64,000 nt of DNA from Knoellia koreensis. Lineage in GTDB: Bacteria; Actinomycetota; Actinomycetes; Actinomycetales; Dermatophilaceae. The first letter of the stretch is position 1, and each line of letters opens with the position of its first letter. Where the stretch lies: contig NZ_JABEPQ010000003.1 in the NCBI RefSeq assembly GCF_013041615.1, positions 186,001 through 250,000 of the forward strand. The letters run 5' to 3'. Shown one piece after another: positions 1 to 64,000 of the stretch. The notes beneath the pieces are model-generated. The model did no database searches, was not told the origin of the DNA, and worked only from the letters and a program-made list of their open reading frames with translations. Both the position numbers and the translations under genes were made by a program.

Positions 1-210
1 GCGCACCAGCTCGCTGGCCCTCGCGATCGGCGCCGGGTCGAGGCCGACGGACTGCGGGCTCGCGTCACGCAGCACGGTGTTCGCGGGCATGTAGCCCATC
101 CTCGGCTTGCTGAAGTCCTCGGCGCTGGCCGGGCCGGCCATGACCACCCCGCTCACCATCGTGGCGGCCACCGTGGCCGTCACCCATGCGGACCTGCGTC
201 CAGTTCGCAT
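1..210 (-). CDS. Secreted protein, N-terminal fragment (possible beta-lactamase-family serine hydrolase)
   Basis: Only the first 70 codons lie in the window; the rest continues past position 1. The start has a signal peptide: a basic N-terminus (MRTGRRSAW), a hydrophobic stretch and an AGPASAE cleavage-like site. The mature start reads LRDASPQSVGLDPAPI, which resembles the opening of penicillin-binding/beta-lactamase-fold hydrolases ('...SPESVGLDPAPI...'). It starts 15 nt after the namZ stop with a good ribosome-binding site (GGGGAGA), so the two are probably cotranscribed. In Bacillus the NamZ muramidase is encoded with AmiE, a beta-lactamase-fold amidase, which fits this pairing. No catalytic motif is visible in the fragment, so the family call is tentative. 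Confidence 0.6.
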   Translation of the reverse strand, partial: MRTGRRSAWVTATVAATMVSGVVMAGPASAEDFSKPRMGYMPANTVLRDASPQSVGLDPAPIARASELVR

Positions 211-225
211 CGTGTCTCCCCTTCG

Positions 226-1539
226 TCAGTTCGCTGGTCCGCGATAGATGAGGTACTGCTGGCGCCGCGCGTCGAACGCGGCGAGCTCGGCCTTCCAGGC
301 GCCGATGACCTCGTCGGCCGAGGCGCCTGCGGTGATCTGGTCGCGCAGGCGGGTCGAGCCCGAGAGCTTGTCGATCCAGTAGGGCCGCTGGGGGTCGTAG
401 CTGTCGTAGCGCCACTGGAAGTCCGAGTAGAGCGACTTGGCCGCCACGAGCACCTCGACCGCGACCCGCAAAGGGTCGAACGTCGCAGTGTCGGTGATGT
501 GCACCTGGACGCCGCCACACACGAGGTTGGCGTGCTTGTTGAACGTCGGCGTGAAGTAGGCCTCGCGGAAGCCCACGCCCGAAATCCCGCGCCCCGCAAG
601 GCGTTCCGCCCACTTGTAGTCGACGTAGGGAGCGCCGATCAGCTCGAACGGCCGCGTCGTCCCACGCCCCTCGGACAGGTTCGTCCCCTCGAACATCCCC
701 GTGCCCGGGTAGACCAGCGCGGTGTCCGGTGTCGGCATGTTGGGACTTGGCATGACCCAGGGAAGGCCCGTCGCGGCATACACGACATCGCGGCGCCAGC
801 CACTCATCTCGACCACGGTGAGGTCGCGCAGGCGCCCGCCCGCGTCGGCCGGCAGGAACTCCGCGTCGAAGAAGCGCGCGAGCTCGCCGACACTCATGCC
901 GTGCGCCTGGACGATCTCCTTGGCCCCGACGCCGGAGGTGTATGCCGTCGTCATCATCGGTCCGCGCGCGGTGCCACCCGTGGGGTTGGGCCGGTCGAGG
1001 ACGACGAAGCGCGCGTCCGTGGCGACGGCGGCGCGCATCGCCGTGTACATCGTCCAGATGTAGGTGTAGAAGCGCGCCCCGGCGTCCTGGATGTCGAAGA
1101 CGACGGTCTCGACGCCCGCCTTGCGGAAGAGGTCGGTCATCTTCGTCACGCCCGCGCCGTAGGCGTCGTAGACGGTGAGGCCGGTGCGCGGGTCGGTCGT
1201 GGTGCCCTCCGAGCCACCCGCCTGGGCGGTGCCGCGGAAGCCGTGCTCGGGCCCGAAGACGCCGACGATGTCGACCGTGCCGGCCTCGTGCATCTCGTCG
1301 ACGATCGAGCGCAGGTTGGTCAGGATTCCGGTGGGGTTGGTGATGATTCCGACCTTCTGGCCGCGCAGCTCGCTCCACCCCTTGGCGGCCTGGACCTCGG
1401 CACCCGTGGTGACCTTGCGGGACGGGTAGTTGGTGGCCGCGGGCGTCCCAGCAGCATTGGCGGCCGCGGCAGCGGCCGGGACGGCCAGCGCGGAAACCCC
1501 TGCTGCAGTGAGCAGTTGGCGACGGTTGAGGGCGGACAT
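226..1539 (-). CDS. namZ: Exo-beta-N-acetylmuramidase NamZ family (DUF1343), Tat-exported
   Basis: The 437-residue product starts with a twin-arginine type signal (NRRQLLTAAG followed by an Ala-rich segment). The DUF1343 signature follows: GQKVGIITNPTG near residue 60, then VFGPEHGFRG, DIQDAGARFYTY, and LDRPNPTGG in the middle. In Bacillus this family removes terminal MurNAc from peptidoglycan fragments during wall recycling. The length fits the family (about 400-440 residues). The start at 1539 has a GGAGGAG ribosome-binding site. The next gene on the strand begins 15 nt after the stop. Family assignment is firm; the exact substrate is inferred from the family. Confidence 0.9.
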   Translation of the reverse strand: MSALNRRQLLTAAGVSALAVPAAAAAANAAGTPAATNYPSRKVTTGAEVQAAKGWSELRGQKVGIITNPTGILTNLRSIVDEMHEAGTVDIVGVFGPEHGFRGTAQAGGSEGTTTDPRTGLTVYDAYGAGVTKMTDLFRKAGVETVVFDIQDAGARFYTYIWTMYTAMRAAVATDARFVVLDRPNPTGGTARGPMMTTAYTSGVGAKEIVQAHGMSVGELARFFDAEFLPADAGGRLRDLTVVEMSGWRRDVVYAATGLPWVMPSPNMPTPDTALVYPGTGMFEGTNLSEGRGTTRPFELIGAPYVDYKWAERLAGRGISGVGFREAYFTPTFNKHANLVCGGVQVHITDTATFDPLRVAVEVLVAAKSLYSDFQWRYDSYDPQRPYWIDKLSGSTRLRDQITAGASADEVIGAWKAELAAFDARRQQYLIYRGPAN

Positions 1540-1717: not shown

Positions 1718-1809
1718 AAACTTCGTCCTAGTCGCGCAACTTACCTACATCTCCGGGGTCCGGCAACAGATGACCGGGTATGCCGCGTGGCCGCCTCCCC
1801 GACCGGCCC

Positions 1810-2178: not shown

Positions 2179-3794
2179 TGGTCGTCCCCTTCCCCAGCCG
2201 GCCGGCCGGCATACCGCCGGAGCACGGTGTGGGTGATGGCCTCCGTGTAGGGGTCGCGCAACCGCAACCCGTTGACCCACTCGGTGCTGCCGGCACAGAA
2301 CACCTCGCCGTCGCCACGCGTGAAGGACGCGATCATCCCGGAGCCGTAGTTCTCGCCCTGGAACCGGTCCGGGACGTCCTGGCCGAACATCGCCTCCACG
2401 AGGCCGCCCCACTCGGCGACGGGCGCGCCGAGCGGAACCGTTCCGCCCCAGCGGTCGATCTCGCCGCGGGTGGCCGGCGCCATCGCGACGATCTCGAGGT
2501 TGTCCGGCGCGCCGTCACTCCCGGTCGCCACCGGCAACCCGCGGTGCATCGTGAAGTCCGCGCCGTCCACCTCGAACGCCGCGACGCACACCGGCGCGGC
2601 GCCGAACACGTCGCCGTAACCCAGGTCGGTGTCGGCGAGCGACCAGTGGTTCGGCCGGTAGATCGTGAACCCTCCTGAGGCGCGCGATGCCGCTGAGCCG
2701 TAACGGATGTAGCACCCGGAGAGCCCGGACAGGCCGAACGTCGAGCCGGGCGGCCGCTGCAGGCCCGGCGCGTCCCACGCCGTCGTGACCAACGTGGGGT
2801 CGCTGTCGCGCAGCGGGTCCAGAGCCGGGTCCTTGTAGCAGGCCTGGGTGTGTCCGTCGTCCTCGATCCGCACCTGCCAGACGAAGTTGCCGCCGAACCG
2901 CGCCACCCGCCCGCCGCCGTCGACATAGGCGTCGACGACGTCCCTCATCTCGCGCGACCAGTACTCGTCGTGGCCGACGAAGACCACGCAGCGGTAGCCG
3001 TCGAGGGCGCTCGGGTCGTGGTGGAGGTCGTGCTGGGTGAGGTAGTCGAGCCGGTAGCCGTGTTCTTGCGCCCAGACGACGAAATGCCTTTCGTACGTGG
3101 CCCAGAACGCGTCGGCGTGGTGCCGTGAGAAGCCGTGCACCATGGCCCACTCGTATGCCGGGTGGCGGGGCAGCTCTCCCGGCTCTGGCGTGTGCGGGTT
3201 GGCGCTGCGTGGCGCGGTGTCGGGCTTGCGGAGCATGCCCCGCGCCACGGGACGCTGCACAGCCGAGAGCGGCGTCGGGATGTCCGTGTAGGGGTCGTCA
3301 CCGAGACCGCGGTAGTGGTTGGCGCCGCCCCAGTCGTTGTAGGCGAGCAGGGTGGAGGTGGTCAGGACCAGCGCGATCGGCGCCGGCTCGGCGTCGGCGG
3401 CCCGGCGCACGACGGCGAAGTGCTCTCCCTCGTAACGCCTTCCGTCGCGCTCCATCCCGACGACGATGAGGTAGAAGCCGCTCTCCCACCCGTCGGTCTC
3501 GATGGTGAGGGCGACCGGCCAACGACACCCCACGGCATACGCGTCGTCGGGGGTCTCGTGCGCCTGGCCCGGCAGCCCCTCGGCGCGGAACACCTCGCGC
3601 GGCCGGGCGCCGTCGAGCATCACGCTGACGTCGTAGGTGTCCGCCGTCGTGTGGACGTGAAGGTCGATCGGGTCACCGGGTGAGTAGGCGAACTCGTCTG
3701 TGTAGCACCAGATTTCGGGCTGCTGCGGGTCGCCTGACGGCCGTTCGATGGGAAATCCGGGGATCGACCAGGCGTAGCGGGGAGCGGAAGTCAC
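2175..3794 (-). CDS. N,N-dimethylformamidase large-subunit-like protein
   Basis: The 539-residue product matches the C-terminal catalytic part of the N,N-dimethylformamidase large subunit: AYNDWGG (about 151-157), HGFSRHHADAFWATYERHF (about 220-238), FVGHDEYWS (272-280), and a late GSTEWVNGL. The true enzyme is longer (about 760 residues), so this one lacks an N-terminal region, and no small-subunit gene is visible. The known enzyme hydrolyses the amide of dimethylformamide at a mononuclear iron site; the substrate here is unknown. The GTG start overlaps the permease stop and its own stop overlaps the cupin start, both by 4 nt, so translation is coupled across the operon. Confidence 0.8.
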   Translation of the reverse strand: MTSAPRYAWSIPGFPIERPSGDPQQPEIWCYTDEFAYSPGDPIDLHVHTTADTYDVSVMLDGARPREVFRAEGLPGQAHETPDDAYAVGCRWPVALTIETDGWESGFYLIVVGMERDGRRYEGEHFAVVRRAADAEPAPIALVLTTSTLLAYNDWGGANHYRGLGDDPYTDIPTPLSAVQRPVARGMLRKPDTAPRSANPHTPEPGELPRHPAYEWAMVHGFSRHHADAFWATYERHFVVWAQEHGYRLDYLTQHDLHHDPSALDGYRCVVFVGHDEYWSREMRDVVDAYVDGGGRVARFGGNFVWQVRIEDDGHTQACYKDPALDPLRDSDPTLVTTAWDAPGLQRPPGSTFGLSGLSGCYIRYGSAASRASGGFTIYRPNHWSLADTDLGYGDVFGAAPVCVAAFEVDGADFTMHRGLPVATGSDGAPDNLEIVAMAPATRGEIDRWGGTVPLGAPVAEWGGLVEAMFGQDVPDRFQGENYGSGMIASFTRGDGEVFCAGSTEWVNGLRLRDPYTEAITHTVLRRYAGRPAGEGDDQ

Positions 3795-5239
3795 GAGTAG
3801 GTCTCCAGGGCGAGTTCGGTGCGGTCACGGTCATCGAGCTGGCCGGCGGACACCGGTCCGACGCTGGCGCCGCGGACGGCGCCGACGACAGCCGCCACCA
3901 CCAGGGGAACCATGATGAGCAGGTTGCCACCGACTCCGAGAGCCGTCAGCAGGGACAGCTTTGCGCAGACCAGCACGAGCACCGCCAGGAGCGCGATGGC
4001 GGACAACGCAGGGGCCACCAGCCGGTGCCACGCGGACTCGCCGCGGGGGTTGCGACGGAAGAAGACGACCACCGCGATGCTCGTTGCGATCTGCAGCACC
4101 AGCACGGCCACCAGCGTCGGGGTGTTGGTCCAGATCACGACCTGGAGGTAGGGGTCGAACCCGCCGACGGCAAAGGCGGCGATGGCTACGAACACGATCA
4201 CGGTCTGCACGACCACGGCCGTCGCGGGGCTGCCGGTGCGGGGGTGCGACCGCCCGAGGGCACGCGGGAGCAGCCCGTCCCGGCCGAGGGCGAAGAGGTA
4301 GCGCGAGCTGGCGTTCTGCAGCGCCAGCACACCGGCGAAGAAGCTCGTCACGATGAGCACCTGGAGCACGTCGGTGGCGGCCGTGCCGAGGTACTGCGTG
4401 TTGACGTCGAAGACCACGGCCGACAGGTCGCCGGCGAGAACCTTCTCGAGGTTGCTGGCCCCGATGCCCATGAGGATCATCCACGAGATGAACGTGTAGA
4501 CCACCGCGAGCAGCACGACCGCCACATAGGTGGCGCGGGGCACCGCCGTGCGCGGGTCGTCGCACTCCTCGCTGTAGACGGCGGTCTGCTCGAAGCCGAT
4601 GTAGACGATGAAGGTGAGGACGAACAGCGGCCCGAGCGCCGACAGGGTCCAGCTGCCGGGGTTGAAGCCCGCCAATGACAACCCGTCCGGGGCGCCCTTG
4701 ACGAGGATGGCCGCGGCGAGCACGAAGAGGATGCCGATCTCAGCGACGAGCAGCACGGCCAGCACCCGGGCACCGACCTCGACCTTGGCGTAGGCCAGGG
4801 CGCCGACCGCGAGCGCGATGACGAGGGCGCAGATCCCCCACGACACCTTCGCACCGGTCACCAGCTCGACCAGGTTGCTCGCGAAGAGGCCCGCTGCGGC
4901 ACAGAACCCGATCTGCCCGAGGGCGTACCCGGCATACGCCAGGAGCGCGGCGGCCCCACCCGGGACGGCGCCGAGGCCCGCCCGGATGTAGCCGTAGAAG
5001 GCGCCGGTGTTGCGCACGTGCCGGCTGATCGTGGTGAAGCCGACCGCGAACAGCAGGTAGACCAGGCCGGCGACGAGGTAGCCGACGGGCGCGGTCTGGC
5101 CGCCGACGAGGAAGGCGAGCGGCGCGAAGCCGGCCAGCACCGTCAGCGGCGCAGCTGCGGCGACGACGAAGAAGACGAGGTGGCCGGTGCGGACGCTGCC
5201 GGCTCGCAGGCCGGTGGCCTCGGTGGTGGGGTTGCTCAT
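3791..5239 (-). CDS. APC-superfamily amino acid/amine permease
   Basis: The 482-residue integral membrane protein has about 12 predicted helices and the APC pattern: an N-terminal [19 protein letters not shown] helix, [22 protein letters not shown] in the loop after helix 6, and [15 protein letters not shown]. The ATG at 5239 overlaps the ureohydrolase stop (ATGA), which fixes the start; a much longer upstream frame is out-of-frame ureohydrolase sequence. It probably imports the substrate of the flanking ureohydrolase and dimethylformamidase-like enzymes, most likely a cationic amino acid, polyamine or guanidino/amide compound. The substrate is inferred from context only. Confidence 0.85.
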
Positions 5240-6279
5240 GACTGGTCCTGTCCTGACGTCGTTGTCGGGGAGGTGGGTGCGGAGGTCGGCTCGGAGGACT
5301 GGCGCCCTCCGGCGTGGAGCGCGTTGACGGCGAGCACCGACAACAGCTCGTAGGCCACGTGGGCGGCGGCGATGCCGGTGATCTCGGCGTGGTCGTAGGG
5401 CGGGCTGACCTCGACGAGGTCGGCGCCGACCAGCTGAGCCCCGACGAGCCCGCGCAGGGTGCCGAGCAGCTCGCGGGAGGTGAGCCCGCCGGCTTCCGGG
5501 GTGCCGGTGCCGGGGGCGTGGGCGGGGTCGAGGACGTCGATGTCGACCGAGACGTATGCCGGGCCGTCGCCGAGGCGCCGCCGCATCGCCTCCACGACAC
5601 CGGATATCCCGAGGGTCTCGTAGTCGTCGGAGGTGGTGACCCGGAAGCCGAGGGCCTCGTCGCTCGTGAGGTCGCTGGCGGCATACAACGGCCCCCGGGT
5701 GCCGATGTGCAGGCAGCGGCGCGGGTCGAGCAGGCCCTCCTCGGCCGCGCGCCGGAACGGTGTGCCATGGGTGACGGGGGCGCCGAAGTAGGTGTCCCAC
5801 GTGTCGAGGTGGGCGTCGAAGTGGACGACGCCGATGGGTCCGTGCCTGCGGGCGGCGGCACGCAGGAGGGGCAGGGCGATGGTGTGGTCGCCCCCGATGG
5901 TGAGCAGGGTCGTGTCCGCGTCGGCGAAGGAGTTGGCGGCGGACTCGATGGCGACGACGGCGTCGTCGATCGAGAACGGGTTGACCGCGAGGTCGCCCGC
6001 GTCCGCGACCTGGTGCACCCCGAACGGCTCGACGCGCAGCGCCGGGTTGTAGGGACGGATCAGCTTGGAGGCGGCACGCACGTGGGCGGGCCCGAACCGG
6101 GCGCCGGGTCGGTAGCTCACACCCGCGTCGAACGGAACCCCGAGCACCGCCACCGCGGCCCGGTCCACCTCGTCGAGCCGCGGCAGCCGCGCGAACGTGT
6201 CGGGGCCCGCGAACCGGGGAACGGCGGACCCGTCCACCGGACCGCGCGGTGCGGTGGTGCCGTCGTGGGTTCCGCTCAT
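5236..6279 (-). CDS. Ureohydrolase (agmatinase/guanidino-acid hydrolase family)
   Basis: The 347-residue product belongs to the arginase/agmatinase fold and has every binuclear Mn ligand motif: [13 protein letters not shown] and [19 protein letters not shown]. The enzyme would hydrolyse a guanidino group to urea and an amine. The family covers agmatinase, guanidinobutyrase, guanidinopropionase and guanidinase, which sequence reading alone cannot separate. The ATG at 6279 has a GGAGAGG site at good spacing and was preferred over an ATG 16 codons upstream. It leads a coupled operon with a permease, an amidase-like enzyme and a cupin, 81 nt downstream of a PucR-type regulator on the same strand. 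Confidence 0.88.
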
Positions 6280-6360: not shown

Positions 6361-7899
6361 TCAGGACTGGCCCAACCGTCCATCGCGGAGGTCGCCGCGC
6401 AGGCGGACGGCGAGATGGAGGTGGAGCCGTCCCTCCGCCGAGTCGAGCTGGGCGCCGGTGAGGTCGGCGATGCGCTGGAGGCGGTTGCGCACGGTGTGGC
6501 GGTGGACGTCGAGCCGCGAGGCGGTCGCGTCGACCGATCCGGCGTCGAGCCAGGCCGCGAGGGTCGCGAGCAGGGTGCCGTCGGCGTCGGCCCGCTCGAG
6601 CGGTGCGAGCACCGTGTCGGCGTAGGCACGCACCGCCTCCGGGGCCGAGACCGTCGCGAGCAGCGTGTCGAGCGGGTCGTCGTGGTGCTCGACCGGTTCA
6701 CCGGTCGACCTGCTGACGAGCATGGCGGCGCGGGCCTGCCCGACCGTGTCGCGCAACCGGTCAAGCGGCATGGGGCGACCGATGCCGCAGGGGCGGCCCG
6801 CGGCGAACCGGCGTGCCACCGCCGCCAGGTCGGTGCCCTCGTCGGCGAGCACCACGAGCTCGCCGCCGTGGTGGCGGACCAGCCCGGCGCTCGCGACCAG
6901 GGCGAGGTCACCGGCCAGCTCGGCCGCTTCGGGCAGGTCGGTCACGTCCACCACGAGTGCCCGCACCGACTCGCCACGCAGGCCGGCGTCGCGCAGGTGC
7001 CCCCAGACCGGTGCGCCGGGGGCCGCGTCGAGGGCCCGGCCGACGAGGGCGGAGCGGGCGCGACGACCGGCGTCACCCGCGAGGTGTCGCCGCTCGAGCT
7101 CGGCCGAGAGCAGCGAGACGAGGGCGGCCACGGCGACCGGGTCGGCCTCGGCTCCGACCGCACCGTCCCCGACCGGGGTCTGCACGACGACGAAACCACG
7201 CAGCCGGTCGACACCCAGCGGCTGCACGTCGACCCGGGCCCGGTCGGTGACGTCGCGGGCGCTGCCGTGCAGGCCTTTCTGCTCGACCGCCGCGAGCAGG
7301 TCGGCAATCCCGCTCGGCGGCGGGCTGCCGGTGGTGTCGAGGGACCGGCCGGCACGGTCGAGGACGAACACGGTGGTGCCGGTGCCGCGTTCCCAGGTGC
7401 GGGTCATGGCCGTGAGGGGGTCGGTGCCCGTCGCGGCGCGGGTGAGGTCACGCAGCAGGTCGACGGCGTGCTGCATCGCCGCCTGCTCCTGCGCCGCGAG
7501 CGCTCGGAACACCGCCTTGGTCACGGCGATGAACGGCACCTCGTCGGGAACGGTGAGCAGGGGTATGCCGTGGCGCCGGGCCGCGGCCACGAGCGGCTCG
7601 GGCGCCTCCTGGTGTGGCAGGCCGTGACCGAGTCCGAGCGCCAGGGCGGCGGCACCACCGTCGCGCACGCTGCGGACATACGCGTCGCACTCGTCCTCGG
7701 TGACCTCCAGCAGCAGCCCGATGGTCATCAGCAGCTCGCCGCCCTGGAGCCACTCCTGCGGCCGGACCAGCTCGGACACGTGCGCGGCCACGATCCGGAC
7801 GTCGTCGGTGGTGGCGGGCACGACCACGTCGAGGTGCAGCGCGGGGTCGCGCACGAGGTCGGCGAGGAGCACGCGAGCAGTATGCGGCAACGACCGCAC
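6361..7899 (-). CDS. PucR-family transcriptional regulator
   Basis: The 512-residue protein has the PucR N-terminal ligand domain (residues about 10-130: GGELLMTIGLLL, then ALGLGHGLPHQEAPEPLVAAARRHGIPLLTVP). A GGDEF-like/GAF-like middle follows, and the C-terminal PucR helix-turn-helix (DVHRHTVRNRLQRIADLTG, about residues 470-490). PucR proteins activate purine, ureide, polyamine and amino acid catabolism. The downstream ureohydrolase operon on the same strand is the obvious target. Position 7899 is the first convincing start; the neighbouring gene runs divergently from 7920. Confidence 0.88.
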   Translation of the reverse strand: MRSLPHTARVLLADLVRDPALHLDVVVPATTDDVRIVAAHVSELVRPQEWLQGGELLMTIGLLLEVTEDECDAYVRSVRDGGAAALALGLGHGLPHQEAPEPLVAAARRHGIPLLTVPDEVPFIAVTKAVFRALAAQEQAAMQHAVDLLRDLTRAATGTDPLTAMTRTWERGTGTTVFVLDRAGRSLDTTGSPPPSGIADLLAAVEQKGLHGSARDVTDRARVDVQPLGVDRLRGFVVVQTPVGDGAVGAEADPVAVAALVSLLSAELERRHLAGDAGRRARSALVGRALDAAPGAPVWGHLRDAGLRGESVRALVVDVTDLPEAAELAGDLALVASAGLVRHHGGELVVLADEGTDLAAVARRFAAGRPCGIGRPMPLDRLRDTVGQARAAMLVSRSTGEPVEHHDDPLDTLLATVSAPEAVRAYADTVLAPLERADADGTLLATLAAWLDAGSVDATASRLDVHRHTVRNRLQRIADLTGAQLDSAEGRLHLHLAVRLRGDLRDGRLGQS

Positions 7900-18194: not shown

Positions 18195-18272
18195 TCTAGT
18201 GCGACGTCCACCCCTCGGGCAGGGCGAGATTCACGCAAACGCGCGCACGCGGCATACCTCTAGGGTGGGCAG

Positions 18273-20467: not shown

Positions 20468-20505
20468 CGAGGTATGCCGCGGGGCCGAGCCCGCGGCATA
20501 CCTCG
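20468..20505 (+). terminator. Hairpin built from two inverted copies of the GTATGCCG word
   Basis: Arms 20468-20483 and 20490-20505 form a perfect 16-bp stem with a 6-nt loop, 9 nt after the regulator stop. Each arm contains GGTATGCCGCGGG or its complement. It is the clearest case of the iterated word serving as a terminator stem. Confidence 0.65.
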
Positions 20506-22928: not shown

Positions 22929-22988
22929 GCTGTCGAGGGGTATGCCGCGTGCGCGCCTGAGCGCGGATGGCACCTCACGCGGTGGTGT

Positions 22989-49291: not shown

Positions 49292-49304
49292 CGGCATACC
49301 GCAA

Positions 49305-52368: not shown

Positions 52369-52520
52369 AACCTATTGGTTCGGCGGCGCGGCCTCGTGTC
52401 GATGTGAGCACGGTCGCGCCCGCCGTCCCAGGTGGTGGACGGCGGGCGCGAGGTATGCCGTGTGGCCGGCGACCGAAAGCGGGTCGCCCGACGCTGGTTG
52501 CAGCGTCGCGGGGATACGCC

Positions 52521-52821: not shown

Positions 52822-53799
52822 TCAGGCGGTGGCGCCGCCCACGTCGCCGTGCGGCACGGGCTGACCGAGCCGTCCGGCCTGGAAGTCCTCGAACGCCTTG
52901 GCCACCTCGGCCTTGGTGTTCATGACGAACGGTCCGGCCCAGGCGACGGGCTCGCGGATCGGCAGCCCGCCGAGCACGACGACGTCGAGCCCCGCGGCAT
53001 ACCGCTCCTGCTGGGTCTGCGCGGCCGACATGCGGATCGCGTCGCCGGCGCCAAAGACGGCGAGCTGGCCCGGGCCGACCGGGGTCTGGTCGGGACCCAC
53101 GAAGCCGTCGCCGCTCATGACGTACACGAGGGCGTTGAAGTCGCGGCGCCACGGCAGCACGAGCTCGCCGCCAGGGGCGACGGTCGCGTGCACCATGGCC
53201 ATCGGCGTGTGCGTCGCGCCGGGACCGGAGACGCCGCCCACCTCGCCGGCGATGACGCGCAGCAGCGAGCCGCCGTCGGCCGACGCGACGAGGCCGACCT
53301 CGCTCGAACGCAGGTCCTGGTAGGCCGGCGGCTTGAGCTTGTCGACCCTGGGCAGGTTGACCCACAGCTGGAACCCGTGGAACAGCCCACCGCTCACGAC
53401 CAGGTGCTCCGGCGGCGCCTCGATGTGCAGGATGCCCGAGCCGGCCGTCATCCACTGGGTGTCGCCGTTGGTGATGGAGCCCCCGCCCCCGTAGGAGTCC
53501 TGGTGGTCGAAGACGCCGTCGATGATGTAGGTGACGGTCTCGAAGCCGCGGTGCGGGTGCCACGGGGTGCCCTTGGGCTCGCCCGGCGCGTACTCGACGG
53601 CTCCCATCTCGTCCATGTGGATGAAGGGGTCGAGGTCACGCAGGTCCACCCCGGCGAAGGCGCGCTTGACCGGGAACCCTTCTCCCTCAAAGCCTTCCGG
53701 CGCGGTGCTGATCGCCTTGACCGGTCGCTGCTGCGCCGCGGAGGACACCGCGGGGACGCGGGGCAGGACGGTCAGGTCGGGGACGGTTACTGCTGGCAT
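52822..53799 (-). CDS. Pirin-family protein
   Basis: The 325-residue bicupin has the pirin N-terminal signature (FAGVDLRDLDPFIHMDEMG, KGTPWHPHRGFETVTYIIDGVFDHQDSYG, MTAGSGILHIEAPPE, GFQLWVNLP) with the conserved metal-binding His/His/Glu set, and a C-terminal pirin cupin. Bacterial pirins act as quercetinase-like dioxygenases or redox regulators. The ATG at 53799 has an AGGAG site; the upstream AGTTGAAACT stretch may be a regulator site. Confidence 0.92.
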   Translation of the reverse strand: MPAVTVPDLTVLPRVPAVSSAAQQRPVKAISTAPEGFEGEGFPVKRAFAGVDLRDLDPFIHMDEMGAVEYAPGEPKGTPWHPHRGFETVTYIIDGVFDHQDSYGGGGSITNGDTQWMTAGSGILHIEAPPEHLVVSGGLFHGFQLWVNLPRVDKLKPPAYQDLRSSEVGLVASADGGSLLRVIAGEVGGVSGPGATHTPMAMVHATVAPGGELVLPWRRDFNALVYVMSGDGFVGPDQTPVGPGQLAVFGAGDAIRMSAAQTQQERYAAGLDVVVLGGLPIREPVAWAGPFVMNTKAEVAKAFEDFQAGRLGQPVPHGDVGGATA

Positions 53800-57398: not shown

Positions 57399-58376
57399 TC
57401 AGACGTCTTCGGTCGGGGTGGTCGGGTTGTTCTTGGTCGCGCGGGCTGCCGCCAGCGCCGCACGGCGTCGGGCGCGCCGGCGGTCGCCACGGATCCACAG
57501 GGCGACCATCACGAGCAGCACCAGCAGGCCGACGCCGGCGCCGATGAGCCGCGGCCACATCCACGACTCGATGCTCCAGTCCATGCCGGTGGCGACCCGC
57601 GTCGGGTCCGCGGCGGGGTCGTAGGCGACGCGGTGACCGCGCACGAGCAGGCGGTGCGTGTTCACGGCATACGGCGTGCAGGTGACGAGGGTGACCTGGT
57701 CGGCACCCGGCGTTCGCACGAGGTCTCCCAGCTGGTCGGGGAGGACCACTTTGACCTGGTCGACCTCGTAGGCGAGCGTGCGCCCGTAGACGTCGACGTA
57801 GAAGCGGTCGCCGACCTTCACCTGGGGCAGGTGGTCGAACATCGTCGCGTTCTCCAGCGAGCTGTGCCCCGTGAGGACCGCGTGGGTGCCGGGGCCGCCG
57901 ACCGGAAGGGTCGAGCCGTAGAGGTGGCCGATGCCGCGGGCGAGGGTCTCGTCGCTGGTGCCGTGGTAGACGGGCAGGTCGACCTTGATGGACGGGATGC
58001 GGATGCGCGCCATCGCGTCGAAGAGGTTCAGCTGGGCGAGGTAGGCGCGGTGCTGGGCGTTGGTGGCGGCCTGCTCCGGCTTCCAGGGGTCCTGGAGCTG
58101 GCCGGGCGGGAGGGCCGCGTTGTACTGCTCCGCCTTGGCCAGCGCCTCGTTCAGAGTGACGGGTGCCGTCTTCTCCGTCTGGTCCTGGTAGCGCTGGGCG
58201 AACTGGCGCTGGTGGTAGTTGTTCCAGTACGTCGCCCCCACCGGGTAGAGGATCACCGCGATGCCCGCCAGCACGAGCAGCAGCGGCACCACGCGGTGTC
58301 GCCACTCGCTGCGCCGGCGCGGGGCGCGGGCAGCGGGCACCGGCGCGGGGGCCGGTCGCTCGAGCAGGGTGGTCAT
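57399..58376 (-). CDS. Class C (pilin-polymerising) sortase
   Basis: The 325-residue enzyme has an N-terminal membrane helix (about 29-48), the lid motif DPW (96-98) typical of pilin sortases, catalytic His171 in LTGHSS, Cys233 in TLVTCTPYAVNTHRLLVRG and Arg246. A second membrane helix lies near the C-terminus. It cleaves the sorting signals and joins pilins by isopeptide bonds. It sits between the shaft pilin and the accessory pilin genes. A strong hairpin precedes it in the transcript. Confidence 0.95.
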   Translation of the reverse strand: MTTLLERPAPAPVPAARAPRRRSEWRHRVVPLLLVLAGIAVILYPVGATYWNNYHQRQFAQRYQDQTEKTAPVTLNEALAKAEQYNAALPPGQLQDPWKPEQAATNAQHRAYLAQLNLFDAMARIRIPSIKVDLPVYHGTSDETLARGIGHLYGSTLPVGGPGTHAVLTGHSSLENATMFDHLPQVKVGDRFYVDVYGRTLAYEVDQVKVVLPDQLGDLVRTPGADQVTLVTCTPYAVNTHRLLVRGHRVAYDPAADPTRVATGMDWSIESWMWPRLIGAGVGLLVLLVMVALWIRGDRRRARRRAALAAARATKNNPTTPTEDV

Positions 58377-58504: not shown

Positions 58505-60232
58505 TCAGGCGTCCTGCTCCTCCCGACGACGGTTCTTCATGGAGTAGGCGACACCGCCACCGACGAGGAGCAGGCCGAGGGCGCTCATCGCCGCGACGCC
58601 GGAACCACCCGTGAGGGGCAGGCTGTTGCCGAAGTTGGCCTGCTCGTTGGCGACCCGCTGGGTGACCGAGGCGGGGGCCGTAGTGCTGCCGGTGGTGTAG
58701 TCGATCGTGATGTAGCGCGGCGCGGCGTCGAGGTTGTAGCCGGCCGGCGCCTTGGTCTCCACGAGGCAGTAGGACAGCCACTTGGTCTGGTCCGCGACCG
58801 GTCCGCCGTTGTAGAAGTTCGACGTCTGCAGGCCGGTGAAGGTGGCCTTGTTGTTCGAGCCGATGGTGGCGGTGTTGATCGGCGTGCCGCTCACGTCGCT
58901 CGCCGAGCAGGTGTTGTCACCGGGGGTGGCGTCGGCGTAGATCGCGAAGACCGCACCGGCCAGGTTGGCGCCGGAGTTCTGCGGGTCGTACTTGTCGACC
59001 ACTACGGTGCCGTACTTGCTCTCGACGACCGGCGACGGGGTGCCCGGCACGGTGCCGGGCGGCGTGGTGGCCGGGGTCTCCGGGTTCACACCGGCGGTGC
59101 CGTACTGGTCCCACCAGTTCTGGTTGGGGACGAACGAGGCCTTGTTGGGGATGACGCCGTCCGCGTCGAGGGCACCGACGGTGGTGTGCAGCGTGGTGAC
59201 GACGTTGAGGCTGCGGTTGGCCTCGAGCTTGGCCAGGCCCGCGTCGGTGAAGACGACGGTGACGAGCGGGCCGTTCGCGACCGAGCCGGAGGTGTATGCC
59301 GTGGCCGGGGTCGTTGCGTTGGGGGCCGTGTAGACGGTGTAGTCGGTGCCGGCGACCAGGGCGGTGCCGTTCGACAGCTTGAGGTCGGCGCCGGTGAAGG
59401 TGAGGGCCGGGTCGAGGTCGTCGTAGACGACATACATGCCGAGCGGGTTCGTGCCGTCGGTGATGGAGCTGGTGACGGTGTAGTCGACCGCGTGCGAGCC
59501 GGTGTTGCCGGCGTCACCGGTGGTGGTGCCCTTGTCGGTGGCGGCCTTGGCGATCGAGTCCGACTGGTTCTTCGGGTAGACGTTGACGTCGTACATCCAC
59601 CGGGTCGGGTCGCTCGGGTTGGTCATCGGCAGGGTCACGAAGAACGGCGCGGCCGGGGTGACCGTGCTCTTGTCGATCGTCGTGCCGTTCGAGGTGAGCG
59701 TGCCGGAGGTCTTCAGGTTCTCGGCCACGAGGTAGAACCCGACACCCGTCGGCTTGGTGAACGTCGCCGAGCCCGAGGCGTCGGTGGTGACGGTGGCCGA
59801 CTTGGCGATGTAGTAGGTCTTCCCGTTGATCGTGAAAGAGCCAGCAGCGATGTCGGCCGAGCTCGGGGTGTAGCCGGTGATCGCAGACGCGTCGGTCCAG
59901 CCCTGGTTGGTCGTGAGGTCGACCTTCTGGGTGTGCGCGGCGTCGTAGAACACCTGGTAGACGTCGAAGTTCACGCCCTGGAGGGGCGGCTGGTTGACCG
60001 TCTGCTCGGTGCCGTTGTTCGGCTGGCCGGTCTGGACACCGAGGTACTTGTGGATGCTCAGCTGGACCGTGGCGGTGGGGTTGATGAGGGCCTTGTTGGA
60101 CGTGTTCTCCTGGGAGACACCGCCGACGGCGTAGGGGTTGCCGGTGTCGGCGAGGGCGACCGTGGCGGGGGCCAGGGTCAGTGTCGCGGCAGCGAGGACA
60201 GCCGCGGCGTAGGCGTAAGAGCGCTTGCTCAT
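58505..60232 (-). CDS. Major (shaft) pilin, SpaA type, LPLTG
   Basis: The 575-residue protein has a Sec signal (SYAYAAAVLAAATLTLAPATVALA), an N-terminal domain, and the pilin motif WMYDVNVYPKN (212-222) whose Lys should form the intermolecular isopeptide bond. A central Cna-B-like domain follows, then a C-terminal domain with E-box YCLVETKAPAGYNL (about 488-501), and the sorting signal LPLTG (538-542) with membrane helix and RREEQDA tail. The ATG at 60232 is preferred over a longer frame to 60277. It lies between the giant adhesin and the sortase, the usual place for the shaft subunit. Confidence 0.93.
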   Translation of the reverse strand: MSKRSYAYAAAVLAAATLTLAPATVALADTGNPYAVGGVSQENTSNKALINPTATVQLSIHKYLGVQTGQPNNGTEQTVNQPPLQGVNFDVYQVFYDAAHTQKVDLTTNQGWTDASAITGYTPSSADIAAGSFTINGKTYYIAKSATVTTDASGSATFTKPTGVGFYLVAENLKTSGTLTSNGTTIDKSTVTPAAPFFVTLPMTNPSDPTRWMYDVNVYPKNQSDSIAKAATDKGTTTGDAGNTGSHAVDYTVTSSITDGTNPLGMYVVYDDLDPALTFTGADLKLSNGTALVAGTDYTVYTAPNATTPATAYTSGSVANGPLVTVVFTDAGLAKLEANRSLNVVTTLHTTVGALDADGVIPNKASFVPNQNWWDQYGTAGVNPETPATTPPGTVPGTPSPVVESKYGTVVVDKYDPQNSGANLAGAVFAIYADATPGDNTCSASDVSGTPINTATIGSNNKATFTGLQTSNFYNGGPVADQTKWLSYCLVETKAPAGYNLDAAPRYITIDYTTGSTTAPASVTQRVANEQANFGNSLPLTGGSGVAAMSALGLLLVGGGVAYSMKNRRREEQDA

Positions 60233-60340: not shown

Positions 60341-63300
60341 TCAGGAGGTGAGTCCCGGAGCGCGTCGACCGGATGGTCTTCGGGTGTATGCCGCGCCGAG
60401 CGCGACGATGAGCAGGCCGAGCAGCGTGGTGCGCAGCGGCCCGTGGCCACCTGCTGCCGGCAGTCGGCCGGCCTTGCTGTCGACGACCTGGATGGTCGTG
60501 GTGCTGCCCGGGGCGAGCATGACGCTGGTGGGCGCGCCCACGAGGGTGATGCCACTCGAGCCGAGGGTGAAGCGGATCGGCTGGGCCAGCAGCTCGTACC
60601 CGCCCGGCGACTTGGTCTCCACCAGCCAGTAGGTGCCGGGGTAGGCCAGGGCGGCCGAGGTGAAGGCGGCACCGCCGGTGACGTCGGCGGTGATGCCGTT
60701 CGCGATCGGGGTCGCGCCCGCCTGGCTCGGGTCGGTGGCGTAGATGGCGAACGTCGCGCCGGGCAGCGGGCAGGTGGTCGCACCACCGGCGCAGGTGGTG
60801 CCGAGCTTGTTGACCTTGACGACCTGGGTCGGCTTCGTCACCGGCGCACAGGCGTCGTTGTTGGCCGACCCGTCGGAGTCACCCACCATCGACACCAGGT
60901 TGAAGAACCCGCCGGCCGAGGGCGTTCCACCGCCGGTGGTGTTGCAGGTGGCCGCCTTGGTCCAGTCGACGGCGGTGAGGTCAGCGGCCTTGCCGTTGAC
61001 GACGATGCTGTAGCTGGCCGTCCCACCGGGCGCGATGGTTGCCGCCGAGGCCGGGATGGCGAACGAGCCCCCCGTGAGGGTCTGCGCCGTGCCGCCGACG
61101 GTCACCGACGTGACCGCGAAACCCGTGGGGAGAGTGACGGAGTCGGTGATCGCCGGGTGCTTTGCGGCGACGCTGCCGGTGTTGGTCACGATGACCGTGT
61201 AGGTGACTGAGGCTGTGCCGTCTGCGGCGGTCTGCACGCTCGTGCCCGTGCCACCCGCGGTGCCACCCTGGGCGAGCTTCTGGATGCCGAACCGCGGCGG
61301 CGGCGCAGTGCATGCACTGTTGTTGGAGGTGTTCGACTCCTGGCCGGTCGGTAGCGCCACGGAGTTGTAGAGCCCGGTGCCCGGGCCGCCACACAGGGCC
61401 GCAGCGGAGGCGCCGCTGTAGGTGAAGGTGACGGACACGGCATACGTGTCAGTCGCCCCCGCGGCGAGCGCGGTGGTGCCGTTCGGCCCCACCGTGAAGG
61501 TGAAGGGGCCGGTCGCCCCGAACGTCGTCGTGCCCGTCGCGGCGCCCTTGGTCCAGGTGGCGGTCTTCGGCGTGAGGTTCGGGTCGAAGCCGAGGGTGTC
61601 GGTGACGGGCCCATAGCTGCCCGCGCCGGTGCCGGTGTTGGAGACCGTGACTGTGTATGCCGCGGTGTAGACGCCGTTCGCGTCCGGCCCGGTCAGTGCC
61701 CCAGCCGTCTTGGCGACGTCGAGCGTCGGGAACAGGACCGTGAGGTGGGCCGTGTCGGTGGCGGTCGCGGAACGGTTGGTGGTGAGGCCCGTGCCGGTGG
61801 CGGTGCCGACGTTGTCGACGCTGTTCGCGGGCGCGGTGGCGGCCGACCAGTAGAGCCACGTCTCGCCCGGGTCGAGCTGGTTGTTGGTGTTGGTGTCGCC
61901 GGACTTGTAGCCGGCCGGTGACGCGAGGCCCGAGATGGAGCCCAGCTTGTCGTCGGTGACCGTGACGGTCCTGACGGGCTCGGTGTACCCGGTTGGCAAC
62001 GACACGGCATACACGTAGACGACCTGGTCACCCCGGTTGACGGTGAGGCTGTCGACCCCGTTGCCCGACCCGGAGGCGAGACGCACGTTCTTGACCACGT
62101 TGATGGCGGGGGCCGGGTTGACGCACGCGCTGTTGTTGGTCGTGGACGCGCTGGCACTCTCGCCGTCGGCGCCCACCGTGTTGTAGAGACCGTTGCCGGC
62201 GGTCCCGTTACACAGGGTGAGCGTGGAGGACGCGGTCGGTGCCTGCTTGACGACCACGGTCACCGTGTAGATGTGCACGCCACCTGAGTTGATCGAGGTC
62301 CCGGCCGTGCCGAAGGTGTAGCTGCCCGTCGCGTCGGCGGTGACCGCGGTCGCAGGGGCGCCGGTCGGCCCACCGGCCCAGCTGAAGCTCACGATGGAGA
62401 CGCCGCTGCTGAAGGCAGGGGTGTCCACGAGCGGGCCGTACAGTCCCGCGATGGTTCCGGTGCCCGTGTTCCTCACGGTCACCGTGTAGGACGCGGTGTA
62501 GTTGCCGTTCCCGTCCGGACCGGTGACCGTGGCGCCGCCTGCCGCCTTGGCCACGTCGATCTTGGCGTCAGAGATGCACGTCTGGGCACTCGAGGTGTTG
62601 TTGGCCGGCACCGGGTCGGCCTCGTTGCTGCCGGTCACCGTCGCGGAGTTGGTGATGCACTGGGTCGTGCCGGGGGCCTTGGCGGTGATCTGGACGTCGT
62701 AGCTGTCGCCTGGGTTGAGGACACCGTTCTGGCAGGTGACCGTGTTGCCGGAGACCGCGCAGTTCGGGTACGCGGTCTTGTCGACTGTGACTCCGGTGTA
62801 GGCGGACGGGACCACGTCGGTGACGAAGCCGCCGGAGGAGATCCCGGGGCCGTTGTTCGTGACGGTGAGGGTGAAGGTCACTGTGCCGCTCGGCGCCACG
62901 GTGGGCGTGGCGGTCTTGAGCACGGCCAGGTCGACATTGTTGTTGTCGACGCAGCTGGCGCCGTCGTTGTTGCCCGAGGTCGGGCCGGTGCGGCTGCTGA
63001 CCACGGCGCCGGCGGTGGTGACCTGGGCCATCTTGTTCTGGGTGTTGGCGTCGAAGCCGAGGTTGCCGTTGCCGTAGGTCCACGCCGCACCGTAGATGTC
63101 GCTGGGCAGTCCGGTGTTGGCAACGGAGCTCCAGGTCTTCGTGGTCGTGTCGAAGGCGTAGAGGGTGGAGCTGCTGTTGTTGATGCCGTAGAGCTTGCTG
63201 TCGACGAAGGCGAAGTCGTTTGTCCGGGGGATGGCCGAGCCGTCGTAGAACTTCGTCGCCGAGACGTTGGCTGGCGGCACGCTGGGCACGGCGGGGACCG

Positions 63301-64000
63301 AGGCGAGGTTGATCGTGTAGATCGCCCCGGTCGTGCTCATGTTGGAGAAGTAGAAGTCGCCGCCCGAGATGGCACCGGCGTTGATGCCCCCGGTCCCCGT
63401 CAGGGTGCCCGCCGCCCTGTCGGCAGTGGCGATGTTGTCGATCGCGCCGAGGTCCTGGATGGTGCCGGAGCCGTCGATGCGGAGCAGGTGGTTGGCCAGG
63501 GTGACGCTGCCGGAGTTCCAGTTCGAGACGGCGTAGAGGTAGTGGTCCGCGGGGTTGTAGGCCAGTGCGTTGTAGCCCCACGTGGTCTGGCTGTCCGCCG
63601 GGATGAAGTCGGACGACGTCGACGTCGTGTACTGCTGGAACAGCGTCGTGTACGGGTTGGTGGTCGGCTTGTTCTGGGCGACCCAGAAGGTCGGGCTCGT
63701 GCAGTCGATCGGCACCAGCGAGGTCGCCGTGACCTGCACCGTGACGGCCTGGGACACGGTCGAGGTGCCGGTGCAGGTGAAGAAGACGTTGCAGGTGTAC
63801 GTGTACGTGTAGCGGGCCGACGCCGTCGACGTGGTGGTCTGGTTCCGGGTCGTCGTGCAGGTGAACGTCTGCGATGCGCCGGGCGCCAGGTTGGTCGCCG
63901 TCGGGGTGATCGGCGAGCAGCTCGGGTCGTTGATCGCCGGGCTGCCGGGACGCAGCGTGGTACCGGCCGTGAGGTTCTTGACGGTGTAGGTGTACGTCAC
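60341..64000 (-). CDS. Giant DUF11-repeat surface adhesin/tip pilin (5' end outside the window)
   Basis: The 1,219 residues in view have, in order, a DUF11-type end (TYTYTVKNLTAGTT), a DUF6923-like beta-propeller (WVAQNKPTTNPYTTLFQQ, AYNPADHYLYAVS, NSSSTLYAFDTTTKTW), and about five DUF11 repeats (starting VDLAVLKTATPTVAPSGTVTFTLTVTNNGPG). A SpaA/Cna-B domain follows (E-box YWLVETKSPGGYEL), then a LPAAG (1180-1184) sorting-like signal, helix and RR tail. Long DUF11 proteins with propellers are cell-surface adhesins. Its place first in the pilus operon fits a tip adhesin. The start is past position 64000. Confidence 0.88.
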   Translation of the reverse strand: MTYTYTVKNLTAGTTLRPGSPAINDPSCSPITPTATNLAPGASQTFTCTTTRNQTTTSTASARYTYTYTCNVFFTCTGTSTVSQAVTVQVTATSLVPIDCTSPTFWVAQNKPTTNPYTTLFQQYTTSTSSDFIPADSQTTWGYNALAYNPADHYLYAVSNWNSGSVTLANHLLRIDGSGTIQDLGAIDNIATADRAAGTLTGTGGINAGAISGGDFYFSNMSTTGAIYTINLASVPAVPSVPPANVSATKFYDGSAIPRTNDFAFVDSKLYGINNSSSTLYAFDTTTKTWSSVANTGLPSDIYGAAWTYGNGNLGFDANTQNKMAQVTTAGAVVSSRTGPTSGNNDGASCVDNNNVDLAVLKTATPTVAPSGTVTFTLTVTNNGPGISSGGFVTDVVPSAYTGVTVDKTAYPNCAVSGNTVTCQNGVLNPGDSYDVQITAKAPGTTQCITNSATVTGSNEADPVPANNTSSAQTCISDAKIDVAKAAGGATVTGPDGNGNYTASYTVTVRNTGTGTIAGLYGPLVDTPAFSSGVSIVSFSWAGGPTGAPATAVTADATGSYTFGTAGTSINSGGVHIYTVTVVVKQAPTASSTLTLCNGTAGNGLYNTVGADGESASASTTNNSACVNPAPAINVVKNVRLASGSGNGVDSLTVNRGDQVVYVYAVSLPTGYTEPVRTVTVTDDKLGSISGLASPAGYKSGDTNTNNQLDPGETWLYWSAATAPANSVDNVGTATGTGLTTNRSATATDTAHLTVLFPTLDVAKTAGALTGPDANGVYTAAYTVTVSNTGTGAGSYGPVTDTLGFDPNLTPKTATWTKGAATGTTTFGATGPFTFTVGPNGTTALAAGATDTYAVSVTFTYSGASAAALCGGPGTGLYNSVALPTGQESNTSNNSACTAPPPRFGIQKLAQGGTAGGTGTSVQTAADGTASVTYTVIVTNTGSVAAKHPAITDSVTLPTGFAVTSVTVGGTAQTLTGGSFAIPASAATIAPGGTASYSIVVNGKAADLTAVDWTKAATCNTTGGGTPSAGGFFNLVSMVGDSDGSANNDACAPVTKPTQVVKVNKLGTTCAGGATTCPLPGATFAIYATDPSQAGATPIANGITADVTGGAAFTSAALAYPGTYWLVETKSPGGYELLAQPIRFTLGSSGITLVGAPTSVMLAPGSTTTIQVVDSKAGRLPAAGGHGPLRTTLLGLLIVALGAAYTRRPSGRRAPGLTS

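What the first reader, a model, noticed from the sequence alone, without database searches (positions are those of the whole stretch)
1..64000. A highly iterated word, GTATGCCG / CGGCATAC, on both strands throughout the window
By eye I count about 60-65 copies. At about 70% GC the chance expectation for this 8-mer on both strands is roughly 2-3 per 64 kb. Copies occur in coding and intergenic DNA, with about equal numbers per orientation, so it is not a polar Chi- or KOPS-like signal. Inside genes it usually reads as Ala-Ala-Tyr or Tyr-Ala and so uses the otherwise rare TAT and GCA codons. Intergenic copies extend to GGTATGCCGCGTGG (for example near 1777, 13628, 22939, 34830). This resembles cyanobacterial HIP1 or DNA-uptake words: a methylation, repair, uptake or nucleoid-protein target.
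Basis: partly seen in the sequence, partly recalled or inferred. Interest (0 to 1): 0.75.

Follow-up and report, generated by a model that had tools for sequence, protein, structure and literature searches.

The report
Genome-wide DNA self-tag with dialects
A family of high-GC bacteria carries thousands of copies of a short DNA word that differs between genera like a dialect and is spaced separately on each strand; it looks like a self-recognition tag for taking up or repairing DNA, of a sort so far described only in two distant bacterial families.

Summary
GTATGCCG occurs 65 times in the window (shuffles 1.2) and 3,986 times in the 4.28-Mb genome (reversed word 114). Codon use does not explain it: 362 copies in genes, 26 after synonymous shuffling.

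The genome is a Pedococcus relative. Across 186 genomes of its family (53 genera), 35 genera carry one of four discrete words: GTATGCCG, GGATGCCG, GTATGCGG or the unrelated CCCCCTTCG (Janibacter, Marihabitans). This parallels the uptake-sequence dialects of Neisseriaceae.

Further uptake-like features: about one copy per kb, no strand bias, an extended flank, intergenic excess, some hairpin pairs behind genes, and maintenance at orthologous sites. Five genera without this Tad pilus locus all lack the word.

One feature is unexpected. Same-orientation copies avoid each other within about 1.5 kb; opposite copies do not (190 versus 336 pairs). A Neisseria-type DUS sample shows no such effect (76 versus 77). 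The word is therefore probably read directionally.

Best reading: a directional DNA-uptake (transformation) tag, confidence 0.5. Main rival: a Chi-like recombination signal. The reader protein is unidentified.

The parts
774..781 (-). word copy, in gene
940..947 (+). word copy, in gene
1778..1785 (+). word copy, intergenic, extended form
2207..2214 (-). word copy, in gene
3153..3160 (+). word copy, in gene
3533..3540 (-). word copy, in gene
4930..4937 (-). word copy, in gene
5554..5561 (+). word copy, in gene
5679..5686 (-). word copy, in gene
7563..7570 (+). word copy, in gene
8590..8597 (-). word copy, in gene
8834..8841 (+). word copy, in gene
9592..9599 (-). word copy, in gene
9848..9855 (+). 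word copy, in gene
10847..10854 (-). word copy, in gene
10937..10944 (+). word copy, in gene
13048..13055 (-). word copy, in gene
13628..13635 (+). word copy, in called gene (near its start), extended form
15459..15466 (-). word copy, in gene
16056..16063 (+). word copy, in gene
17772..17779 (+). word copy, in gene
18018..18025 (+). word copy, in gene
18250..18257 (-). word copy, intergenic
20472..20479 (+). word copy, intergenic, arm of hairpin pair
20494..20501 (-). word copy, intergenic, arm of hairpin pair
22940..22947 (+). word copy, intergenic
23306..23313 (-). word copy, in gene
25103..25110 (-). word copy, in gene
25657..25664 (+). word copy, in gene
28628..28635 (+). word copy, intergenic
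29009..29016 (+). word copy, in gene
31355..31362 (+). word copy, intergenic
32699..32706 (+). word copy, in gene
34124..34131 (-). word copy, in gene
34829..34836 (+). word copy, intergenic, extended form
35363..35370 (-). word copy, in gene
36790..36797 (-). word copy, intergenic, arm of inverted pair
36808..36815 (+). word copy, intergenic, arm of inverted pair
38641..38648 (+). word copy, intergenic
38985..38992 (-). word copy, in gene
39925..39932 (+). word copy, in gene
42612..42619 (+). word copy, in gene
42796..42803 (-). word copy, in gene
44494..44501 (-). word copy, in gene
46301..46308 (-). word copy, in gene, arm of inverted pair
46316..46323 (+). word copy, in gene, arm of inverted pair
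46695..46702 (+). word copy, in gene
49292..49299 (-). word copy, intergenic, overlapping the start of a 55-nt repeat
49457..49464 (-). word copy, in gene
50721..50728 (+). word copy, in gene
51245..51252 (-). word copy, in gene
52179..52186 (-). word copy, in gene
52453..52460 (+). word copy, intergenic
52995..53002 (-). word copy, in gene
54604..54611 (+). word copy, in gene
55347..55354 (-). word copy, in gene
56059..56066 (+). word copy, in gene
56215..56222 (-). word copy, in gene
57148..57155 (+). word copy, in gene
57665..57672 (-). word copy, in gene
59294..59301 (+). word copy, in gene
60386..60393 (+). word copy, in gene
61438..61445 (-). word copy, in gene
61655..61662 (+). word copy, in gene
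62005..62012 (-). word copy, in gene
20468..20505 (+). hairpin of two inverted extended words, the first 12 nt behind a called stop codon (terminator-like)
   Evidence: RNA fold of 20462-20511 -39.1 kcal/mol, z -6.6

Best explanation
GTATGCCG, with its extended form GGTATGCCGCGTGG, is a self-recognition word for homologous DNA. Most likely it is a DNA-uptake (transformation) sequence of this actinobacterial family, read with polarity by the Tad-pilus/ComEA-ComEC competence machinery or a protein working with it. DNA carrying the word is preferentially taken up or integrated, so copies that arise by point mutation spread by biased transformation and are kept. One site serves a stretch of about 1-1.5 kb on one strand only, so a second site in the same orientation nearby gains nothing while an opposite one does. 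Shown by sequence: enrichment, dialects, excess conservation of sites, orientation-specific spacing. Indicated only: scarcity in mobile DNA (three stretches picked after the fact).
For: Density 0.93/kb with equal orientations. Core plus soft flank: intergenic -1 G 72%, +9 G 76%, +11 G 74%. Intergenic 1.44/kb vs 0.83/kb in genes. 16 close inverted pairs in 504 kb, 14 of them intergenic, several 5-56 nt behind a called stop codon, some with long stems. PMC1626085 says of USS and DUS: about 1 per kb, no orientation bias, more regular than random, some close opposite pairs, non-coding excess (passages); all are met here except that regularity holds only within each orientation. Dialects: 186 genomes, four discrete genus-level words, mixed GTATGCCG + GGATGCCG in one genus (g53), and the CCCCCTTCG clade placed inside the GTATGCCG-bearing group on a TadA tree; compare the eight Neisseriaceae dialects (PMC3630211 abstract). 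Competence parts: ComEC in 36 of 36 genomes; ComEA-ComEC and a tadABC-flp-tadE-(TadF-like)-tadG locus in this genome, the same order as the tad clusters needed for transformation of the actinobacterium Micrococcus luteus (PMC4322843 passages). The five genera with neither a TadF match nor a TadA hit better than 1e-55 (12 of 12 genomes) all lack the word; Fisher one-sided p 0.003, no correction for kinship. Maintenance: 95 of 200 aligned word sites exact in relatives vs 20-23% of other 8-mers; one-mismatch 12.5% vs 27%; no indel excess.
Against: Thirteen word-negative genera keep TadF or a close TadA, so this Tad locus is at most necessary. TadF or a full close TadA match is missing in some word-positive genomes (G027, G135, G178, G172, G151, G093, G219, and incomplete MAGs G101, G156, G215, G222). 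The orientation-specific spacing is not expected of a tag that works in either orientation. It is absent from a sample of Neisseria-type DUS (76 same vs 77 opposite), and orientation had no significant effect on H. influenzae uptake (PMC1939737 passages). Overall spacing, both orientations pooled, is no more even than random (gap CV 0.96 vs 0.99). The excess of close inverted pairs is modest here (16 vs 10.4 expected under 50 bp in 424 kb), absent in G014 and strong only in Marihabitans (11 vs about 2).
Confidence: 0.5

Rival explanations
1. Chi-like recombination signal: an end-processing enzyme of double-strand-break repair (for example AdnAB; name recalled, not searched for) reads the word in one orientation while travelling along DNA and switches to recombination. 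Each orientation must be supplied separately every kb or so.
For: Same-orientation copies repel within about 1.5 kb and opposite ones do not: 190 vs 336 pairs in this genome, 28 vs 70 in 20 pieces of the genus and g70, 96 vs 148 in 28 pieces of other genera, 83 vs 130 in G014. Among 63 control words the median same fraction is 0.53; the two lowest (0.31, 0.38) are overlapping forms of the word itself, the next is 0.43. Known Chi are 5-8 nt, differ between genera and need not be strand-skewed (PMC5959072 passages). A tolerant position such as in GTATGNCG also resembles Chi variants (recalled).
Against: RecC, part of the RecBCD Chi reader, is in only 10 of 36 genomes and in none of G001-G010, which all carry the word. 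Enrichment here is about 35-fold over the reversed word against four- to eightfold over chance for E. coli Chi. A 13-16-bp consensus, loss in many genera, and replacement by an unrelated word in some genera are not expected of a repair signal. Lack of the word goes with lack of the Tad locus.
Confidence: 0.25
2. HIP1-like methylation or strand-mark word: a methyltransferase or nickase marks one strand of this non-palindromic site and repair uses the nearest mark on each strand.
For: Per-strand even spacing fits a mark needed on each strand. HIP1 has comparable enrichment and has been linked to methyltransferases and repair (PMC4390886 passages).
Against: The core is not palindromic, unlike HIP1. 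No candidate methyltransferase or methylome was examined. Dialects that replace each other and the Tad association are unexplained.
Confidence: 0.13
3. Binding site of a nucleoid or segregation protein.
For: Spread over the stretches sampled, scarce in island-like ones.
Against: No strand bias in the blocks sampled. Spacing depends on orientation, which is not needed for compaction. Loss in whole genera of the same family.
Confidence: 0.07
4. By-product of codon or dipeptide use, or a mobile repeat family.
For: Most genic copies use two reading frames.
Against: Synonymous shuffles give 26 copies against 362 observed. Orthologous sites differ by substitutions, with no excess of indels (7% vs 8%). 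Beyond about 16 bp the flanks show little shared sequence.
Confidence: 0.01

Closest known systems
DNA uptake sequences (DUS) of Neisseriaceae and their dialects (PMC3630211 abstract; ComP reader PMC3868556, search listing only)
   Same: Short non-palindromic word, about 1 per kb, both strands equally, dialects among members of one family, some close inverted pairs.
   Different: Actinobacteria with a Tad locus; type IVa-like PilB hits in only 2 of 36 genomes. The dialects here include one unrelated word. Same-orientation copies avoid each other here (190/336) but not in the DUS sample (76/77). Reader unknown.
Uptake signal sequences (USS) of Pasteurellaceae (PMC1626085, PMC7811141, PMC12616744, passages)
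   Same: Short core plus softer flank on one side; two types in two subclades; terminator-like close pairs.
   Different: Different sequence and bacteria. Our USS sample (54 sites) was too small to judge orientation spacing.
Chi sites (E. coli and others; PMC5959072 passages)
   Same: Octamer, differing between genera, directional action; skew not obligatory.
   Different: No RecC in 26 of 36 genomes; stronger enrichment; extended consensus; whole-genus absence.
HIP1 of cyanobacteria (PMC4390886 passages)
   Same: Highly iterated 8-mer with an extended form; replaced by other words in some genomes.
   Different: HIP1 is palindromic and tied to methyltransferases; ours is not palindromic.
Flp/Tad-dependent transformation of Micrococcus luteus (PMC4322843 passages)
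   Same: Same tad gene order with comEA/comEC, also an actinobacterium.
   Different: No uptake word described: the term 'uptake sequence' does not occur in its main text.

Membership tests
DUS/USS uptake sequences | highly over-represented short word, about 1 per kb, genome-wide | tested here: met
   3,986 in 4.28 Mb vs 114 reversed
DUS/USS uptake sequences | no overall strand bias | tested here: met
   1983 vs 2003; balanced within blocks
DUS/USS uptake sequences | dialects among relatives | tested here: met
DUS/USS uptake sequences | intergenic excess | tested here: met
   1.44 vs 0.83 per kb
DUS/USS uptake sequences | close inverted hairpin pairs | tested here: inconclusive
   present (16 in 504 kb) but only 16 vs 10.4 expected under 50 bp in 424 kb; none in excess in G014, strong in Marihabitans
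DUS/USS uptake sequences | more regular spacing than random | tested here: inconclusive
   within each orientation yes (CV 0.72 vs 1.00), pooled no (0.96 vs 0.99)
DUS/USS uptake sequences | spacing indifferent to orientation (as in our Neisseria-type sample) | tested here: not met
   190/336 vs 76/77, Fisher p 0.003; the feature is my own comparison, not a textbook criterion
DUS/USS uptake sequences | competence machinery present | tested here: met
   ComEC 36 of 36; Tad locus in this genome
DUS/USS uptake sequences | word raises DNA uptake or transformation through a specific receptor | not testable with these tools
   no experiment; receptor not identified
Chi sites of RecBCD | RecBCD present in all carriers | tested here: not met
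   RecC in 10 of 36; absent in G001-G010
Chi sites of RecBCD | orientation-dependent action | tested here: inconclusive
   spacing is orientation-specific, action untested
Chi sites of another enzyme (AdnAB/AddAB) | enzyme present and recognising the word | not tested
HIP1 | palindromic core | tested here: not met
   GTATGCCG is not its own reverse complement
HIP1 | methyltransferase tracking the word | not tested
   no search made

The most novel reading that the evidence does not exclude
This actinobacterial family has its own system of DNA self-recognition words with at least four to six dialects, one of them unrelated in sequence. It would be the first outside Neisseriaceae and Pasteurellaceae, and it is read directionally, one strand at a time, by a Tad-linked or otherwise new reader, unlike DUS.
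Probability: 0.5. Interest if true: 0.9.

Novelty: new variant of a known kind. Interest (0 to 1): 0.82.

Why it matters
[quoted passage not shown] A third, independent system in high-GC Gram-positives would show that self-tagging evolves repeatedly and with a different pilus. The orientation-specific spacing is a clue, new to me, that the word is read directionally. Genus-level word replacement (GTATGCCG to CCCCCTTCG) bears on how genetic isolation arises in bacteria.

Tried and rejected
Codon or dipeptide use: rejected. Classical type IVa pili: T2SSE hits of the PilB strength (E below 1e-120; the name is recalled) only in G015 and G035 of 36, so not the common machinery. ComEC presence: uninformative, 36 of 36. 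Whether word-negative species in word-bearing genera (G144, G082, G168) lost the word or switched: G144 shows GTACGGCGT (40 vs 2.7 expected in 140 kb), the other two nothing clear. Dialects of G033 (GTACGNCG), G034 (GTACGCC) and G011 (GGATGCCG, weak) are suggestive only. No dominant word was seen in about 64-84 kb each of G012, G018, G019, G020, G024, G029. Literature searches for the exact words: 643 and 2,606 papers, of which the 20 listed each were on other subjects; none was opened. Searches for uptake sequences in Actinobacteria gave 0 papers, 185 with 20 listed, 183 with 15 listed and 9; no listed title was about this word. All in one open-licence library. Structure prediction and a methyltransferase search were not attempted.

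Definitions used: GTATGCCG-positive = at least 300 copies and 2.5 times the reversed control; CCCCCTTCG likewise; GGATGCCG at least 2,000; GTATGCGG at least 500 and 2.5 times. They were set after seeing the counts. g49 (189-293 copies, 4-4.6 times control) falls just below and counts as negative. In one search, 190 of 390 site-by-genome cells were unaligned and dropped. G222 (68% complete MAG) is word-positive with neither TadF nor a close TadA. The word-poor stretches (C9:1-26300, L007:9491-20000, the insert in L085) were picked because they looked word-poor. In one search, 49 and 33 fetched stretches became 23 and 14 after dropping short and near-identical ones. The tree has modest support at the deciding forks (90/68 to 93/87) and is of one protein.

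Full report
WHAT IS THERE. GTATGCCG occurs 65 times in the window, 34 + and 31 -, against 1.23 in shuffles. In the whole 4.28-Mb genome it occurs 1983 + 2003 times; the same word read backwards occurs 54 + 60 times. In 504 kb of this genome (the window plus 22 stretches of 20 kb, genes called by my own script) there are 463 copies, 0.92 per kb. Of these, 362 lie in genes (0.83 per kb) and 101 in intergenic or edge DNA (1.44 per kb). The intergenic copies have the consensus GGTATGCCGCGTGG(CC): -1 G 72%, +8 C 62%, +9 G 76%, +10 T 50%, +11 G 74%, +12 G 61%. One-letter variants are mostly not enriched in the window. The word is scarce in island-like stretches that I picked after seeing the counts: 1 in 26.3 kb at the start of contig C9 (transposase-like ORFs by eye), 0 in 10.5 kb beside a recombinase-like ORF, 1 in the last 10 kb of L085, where tadA of G017 is interrupted.

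WHERE IT COMES FROM. A TadA profile scan gave as best named hits Pedococcus bigeumensis and two Phycicoccus strains (89-90% identity) and P. cremeus (86%). The family would be Dermatophilaceae in the GTDB sense (my inference from these names); NCBI families among the relatives are Intrasporangiaceae, Ornithinimicrobiaceae and Dermacoccaceae. The organism itself was not named by any search.

DIALECTS. Within the family the word is discrete by genus. Of 58 genomes first compared, the own genus is enriched in 11 of 11; of the 22 genomes of other families of the order none reaches 300 copies. Small samples then showed other words, which I counted genome-wide in 186 genomes of 53 genera. GTATGCCG is enriched in most genera. 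CCCCCTTCG is in 16 of 16 genomes of g62 (holding Janibacter limosus) and 3 of 3 of g66 (holding Marihabitans asiaticum; both identified by identical counts), with 797 to 1,939 copies each; the other 167 have at most 80. GGATGCCG is in g17 (2 of 2), g53 (4 of 4) and g74 (1 of 1), with 2,099 to 4,480 copies; the other 179 have at most 1,336. GTATGCGG is in g21 (4 of 4; G030 is Nostocoides sp. F2B08 by contig match), with 511 to 1,204 copies; the other 182 have at most 476. In g53 two species carry about 1,200 GTATGCCG together with about 2,100-2,200 GGATGCCG, and two others mainly GGATGCCG (4,480 and 3,619 against 361 and 288). That looks like replacement in progress. By the thresholds given in Tried and rejected, 35 of 53 genera carry one of the four words. 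A TadA tree places the CCCCCTTCG genera inside the GTATGCCG-bearing group, with modest support, so the word was probably replaced wholesale there.

SPACING: THE UNEXPECTED FEATURE. In 424 kb of joined stretches, neighbouring copies have opposite orientation in 297 of 417 cases (p 2e-18; random placement 208.5, maximum 241 in 2,000 runs). The cause is that same-orientation copies are scarce within about 1.5 kb (observed/expected 0 to 0.77), while opposite ones are near expectation (0.86 to 1.5). Pooled over orientations the gaps are no more even than random (CV 0.96 vs 0.99); within one orientation they are (0.72 vs 1.00, minimum of 2,000 runs 0.84). Counting pairs 50-1500 bp apart, same versus opposite: this genome 190/336; 20 pieces of the same genus (18) and g70 (2) 28/70; 28 pieces of other genera 96/148; G014 83/130; Marihabitans with CCCCCTTCG 43/63 (p 0.064, not significant). 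Sixty-three control 8-mers of this genome have a median same fraction of 0.53; the two lowest (0.31, 0.38) are overlapping forms of the word itself, the next lowest is 0.43. As a yardstick I took contigs carrying Neisseria-type DUS: 180 DUS in 245 kb (23 of 49 fetched stretches, the rest short or near-identical) gave 76 same and 77 opposite, different from this genome (Fisher p 0.003). The USS sample was too small (9 vs 10). The yardstick contigs are labelled viral and were fetched through inverted DUS pairs, so they are not a random genome sample; the same/opposite ratio beyond 50 bp should not depend on that, but complete genomes are needed. My reading is that whatever uses the word sees each strand separately and is saturated by one site per roughly 1-1.5 kb.

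ORIGIN AND MAINTENANCE. In 20 orthologous 20-kb pieces of relatives (77-82% identity), 95 of 200 aligned word sites are exact, against 20% of all other 8-mers and 23% of those with three A/T. One-mismatch states are scarcer than in controls (12.5% vs 27%) and indels are not in excess (7% vs 8%). The copies therefore arise by substitution and are kept, not inserted. Sixteen inverted pairs lie within 50 bp in 504 kb; 14 are intergenic, several 5-56 nt behind a called stop codon, some with stems longer than the word. The window pair at 20472-20501 folds to -39.1 kcal/mol (z -6.6); the two other pairs fold less remarkably (z -1.7 and -2.3). Against expectation the number of close pairs is only 1.5-fold (16 vs 10.4); G014 shows no excess and Marihabitans about sixfold.

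MACHINERY. ComEC is present in 36 of 36 genomes, so it cannot explain the pattern. This genome has ComEA (HhH + SLBB) beside ComEC, and a locus tadA-tadB-tadC-flp-tadE-(TadF-like)-tadG ('flp' and 'TadF' are by position and recall, no Pfam hit). That is the gene order of the clusters needed for transformation in Micrococcus luteus (PMC4322843, passages). In 186 genomes, neither TadF nor a TadA hit better than 1e-55 is found in any of the 12 genomes of five genera (g7, g14, g15, g48, g54; other Tad-type ATPases may remain there). All are word-negative: 5 of 18 negative versus 0 of 35 positive genera, p 0.003, not corrected for kinship. I did not look for unknown words in g48 and g54, and only in 12-64 kb of one genome each of g7, g14 and g15. 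Against this, 13 negative genera keep TadF or a close TadA, and some positive genomes have an interrupted tadA or no TadF (listed under evidence against). RecC is in 10 of 36 genomes and absent from ten word-bearing members of the own genus.

INTERPRETATION. On density, orientation balance, flank, intergenic excess, dialects by genus, maintenance and link to a competence pilus, the word behaves like DUS/USS as described in PMC1626085 (passages) and PMC3630211 (abstract). The orientation-specific spacing is a departure. It suggests either an uptake/integration step that proceeds from the word in one direction, or a Chi-like enzyme. Published Chi need not be strand-skewed (PMC5959072, passages), so the lack of skew does not exclude Chi. 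The stronger enrichment, the wholesale replacements and absences, and the Tad association make me prefer uptake (0.5) over Chi-like (0.25).

NOVELTY. A 2025 paper states that only Neisseriaceae and Pasteurellaceae are known to discriminate homologous DNA this way (PMC12616744, passage). My searches (one open-licence library, listings only partly shown) turned up no report of this word or of uptake words in Actinobacteria; subscription papers and most preprints were not covered.

Noticed in passing
L085:9224-11409 (G017:C43); also G003, G009, G027 and partial best TadA hits in G031, G121, G141, G202, G204, G206, G213, G216, G218: tadA is split by inserted DNA, in G017 next to an ORF that looks like a serine recombinase (by eye). 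tadA may be a recurrent attachment site, as some competence genes are in other bacteria (recalled). Some of the partial hits may be contig ends.
   Followed up: partly
L120:13425-16183 (Nostocoides sp. F2B08): Transposase-like ORFs (by eye) lie between tadC and where flp/tadE would be; a TadF match is found on another contig (G030:C42).
   Followed up: no
L251-L257 (G144): A member of a word-bearing genus without GTATGCCG is instead rich in GTACGGCGT(C) (40 copies of the 9-mer in 140 kb, 2.7 expected): a likely further dialect.
   Followed up: partly
G033, G034 samples: GTACGNCG and GTACGCC are enriched; possible dialects related to that of G144.
   Followed up: partly
window 48052-48168 and 49232-49348: Two 55-nt repeats at each end of a roughly 1.2-kb stretch; by eye the two ends resemble each other in inverted sense. 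Between them lies an ORF (48184-49134 -) that my gene caller did not call; one word copy (49292) overlaps the last repeat.
   Followed up: no
G004:C1:1517076-1517881 (in L244): ComEC is read in two open frames (584 and 424 aa), a frameshift or sequencing error, in a genome that still carries 2,537 words.
   Followed up: no
L035/L095/L185/L186 (G018): One or more long C/G runs (44 overlapping CCCCCCCC in 80 kb, 10 expected).
   Followed up: no
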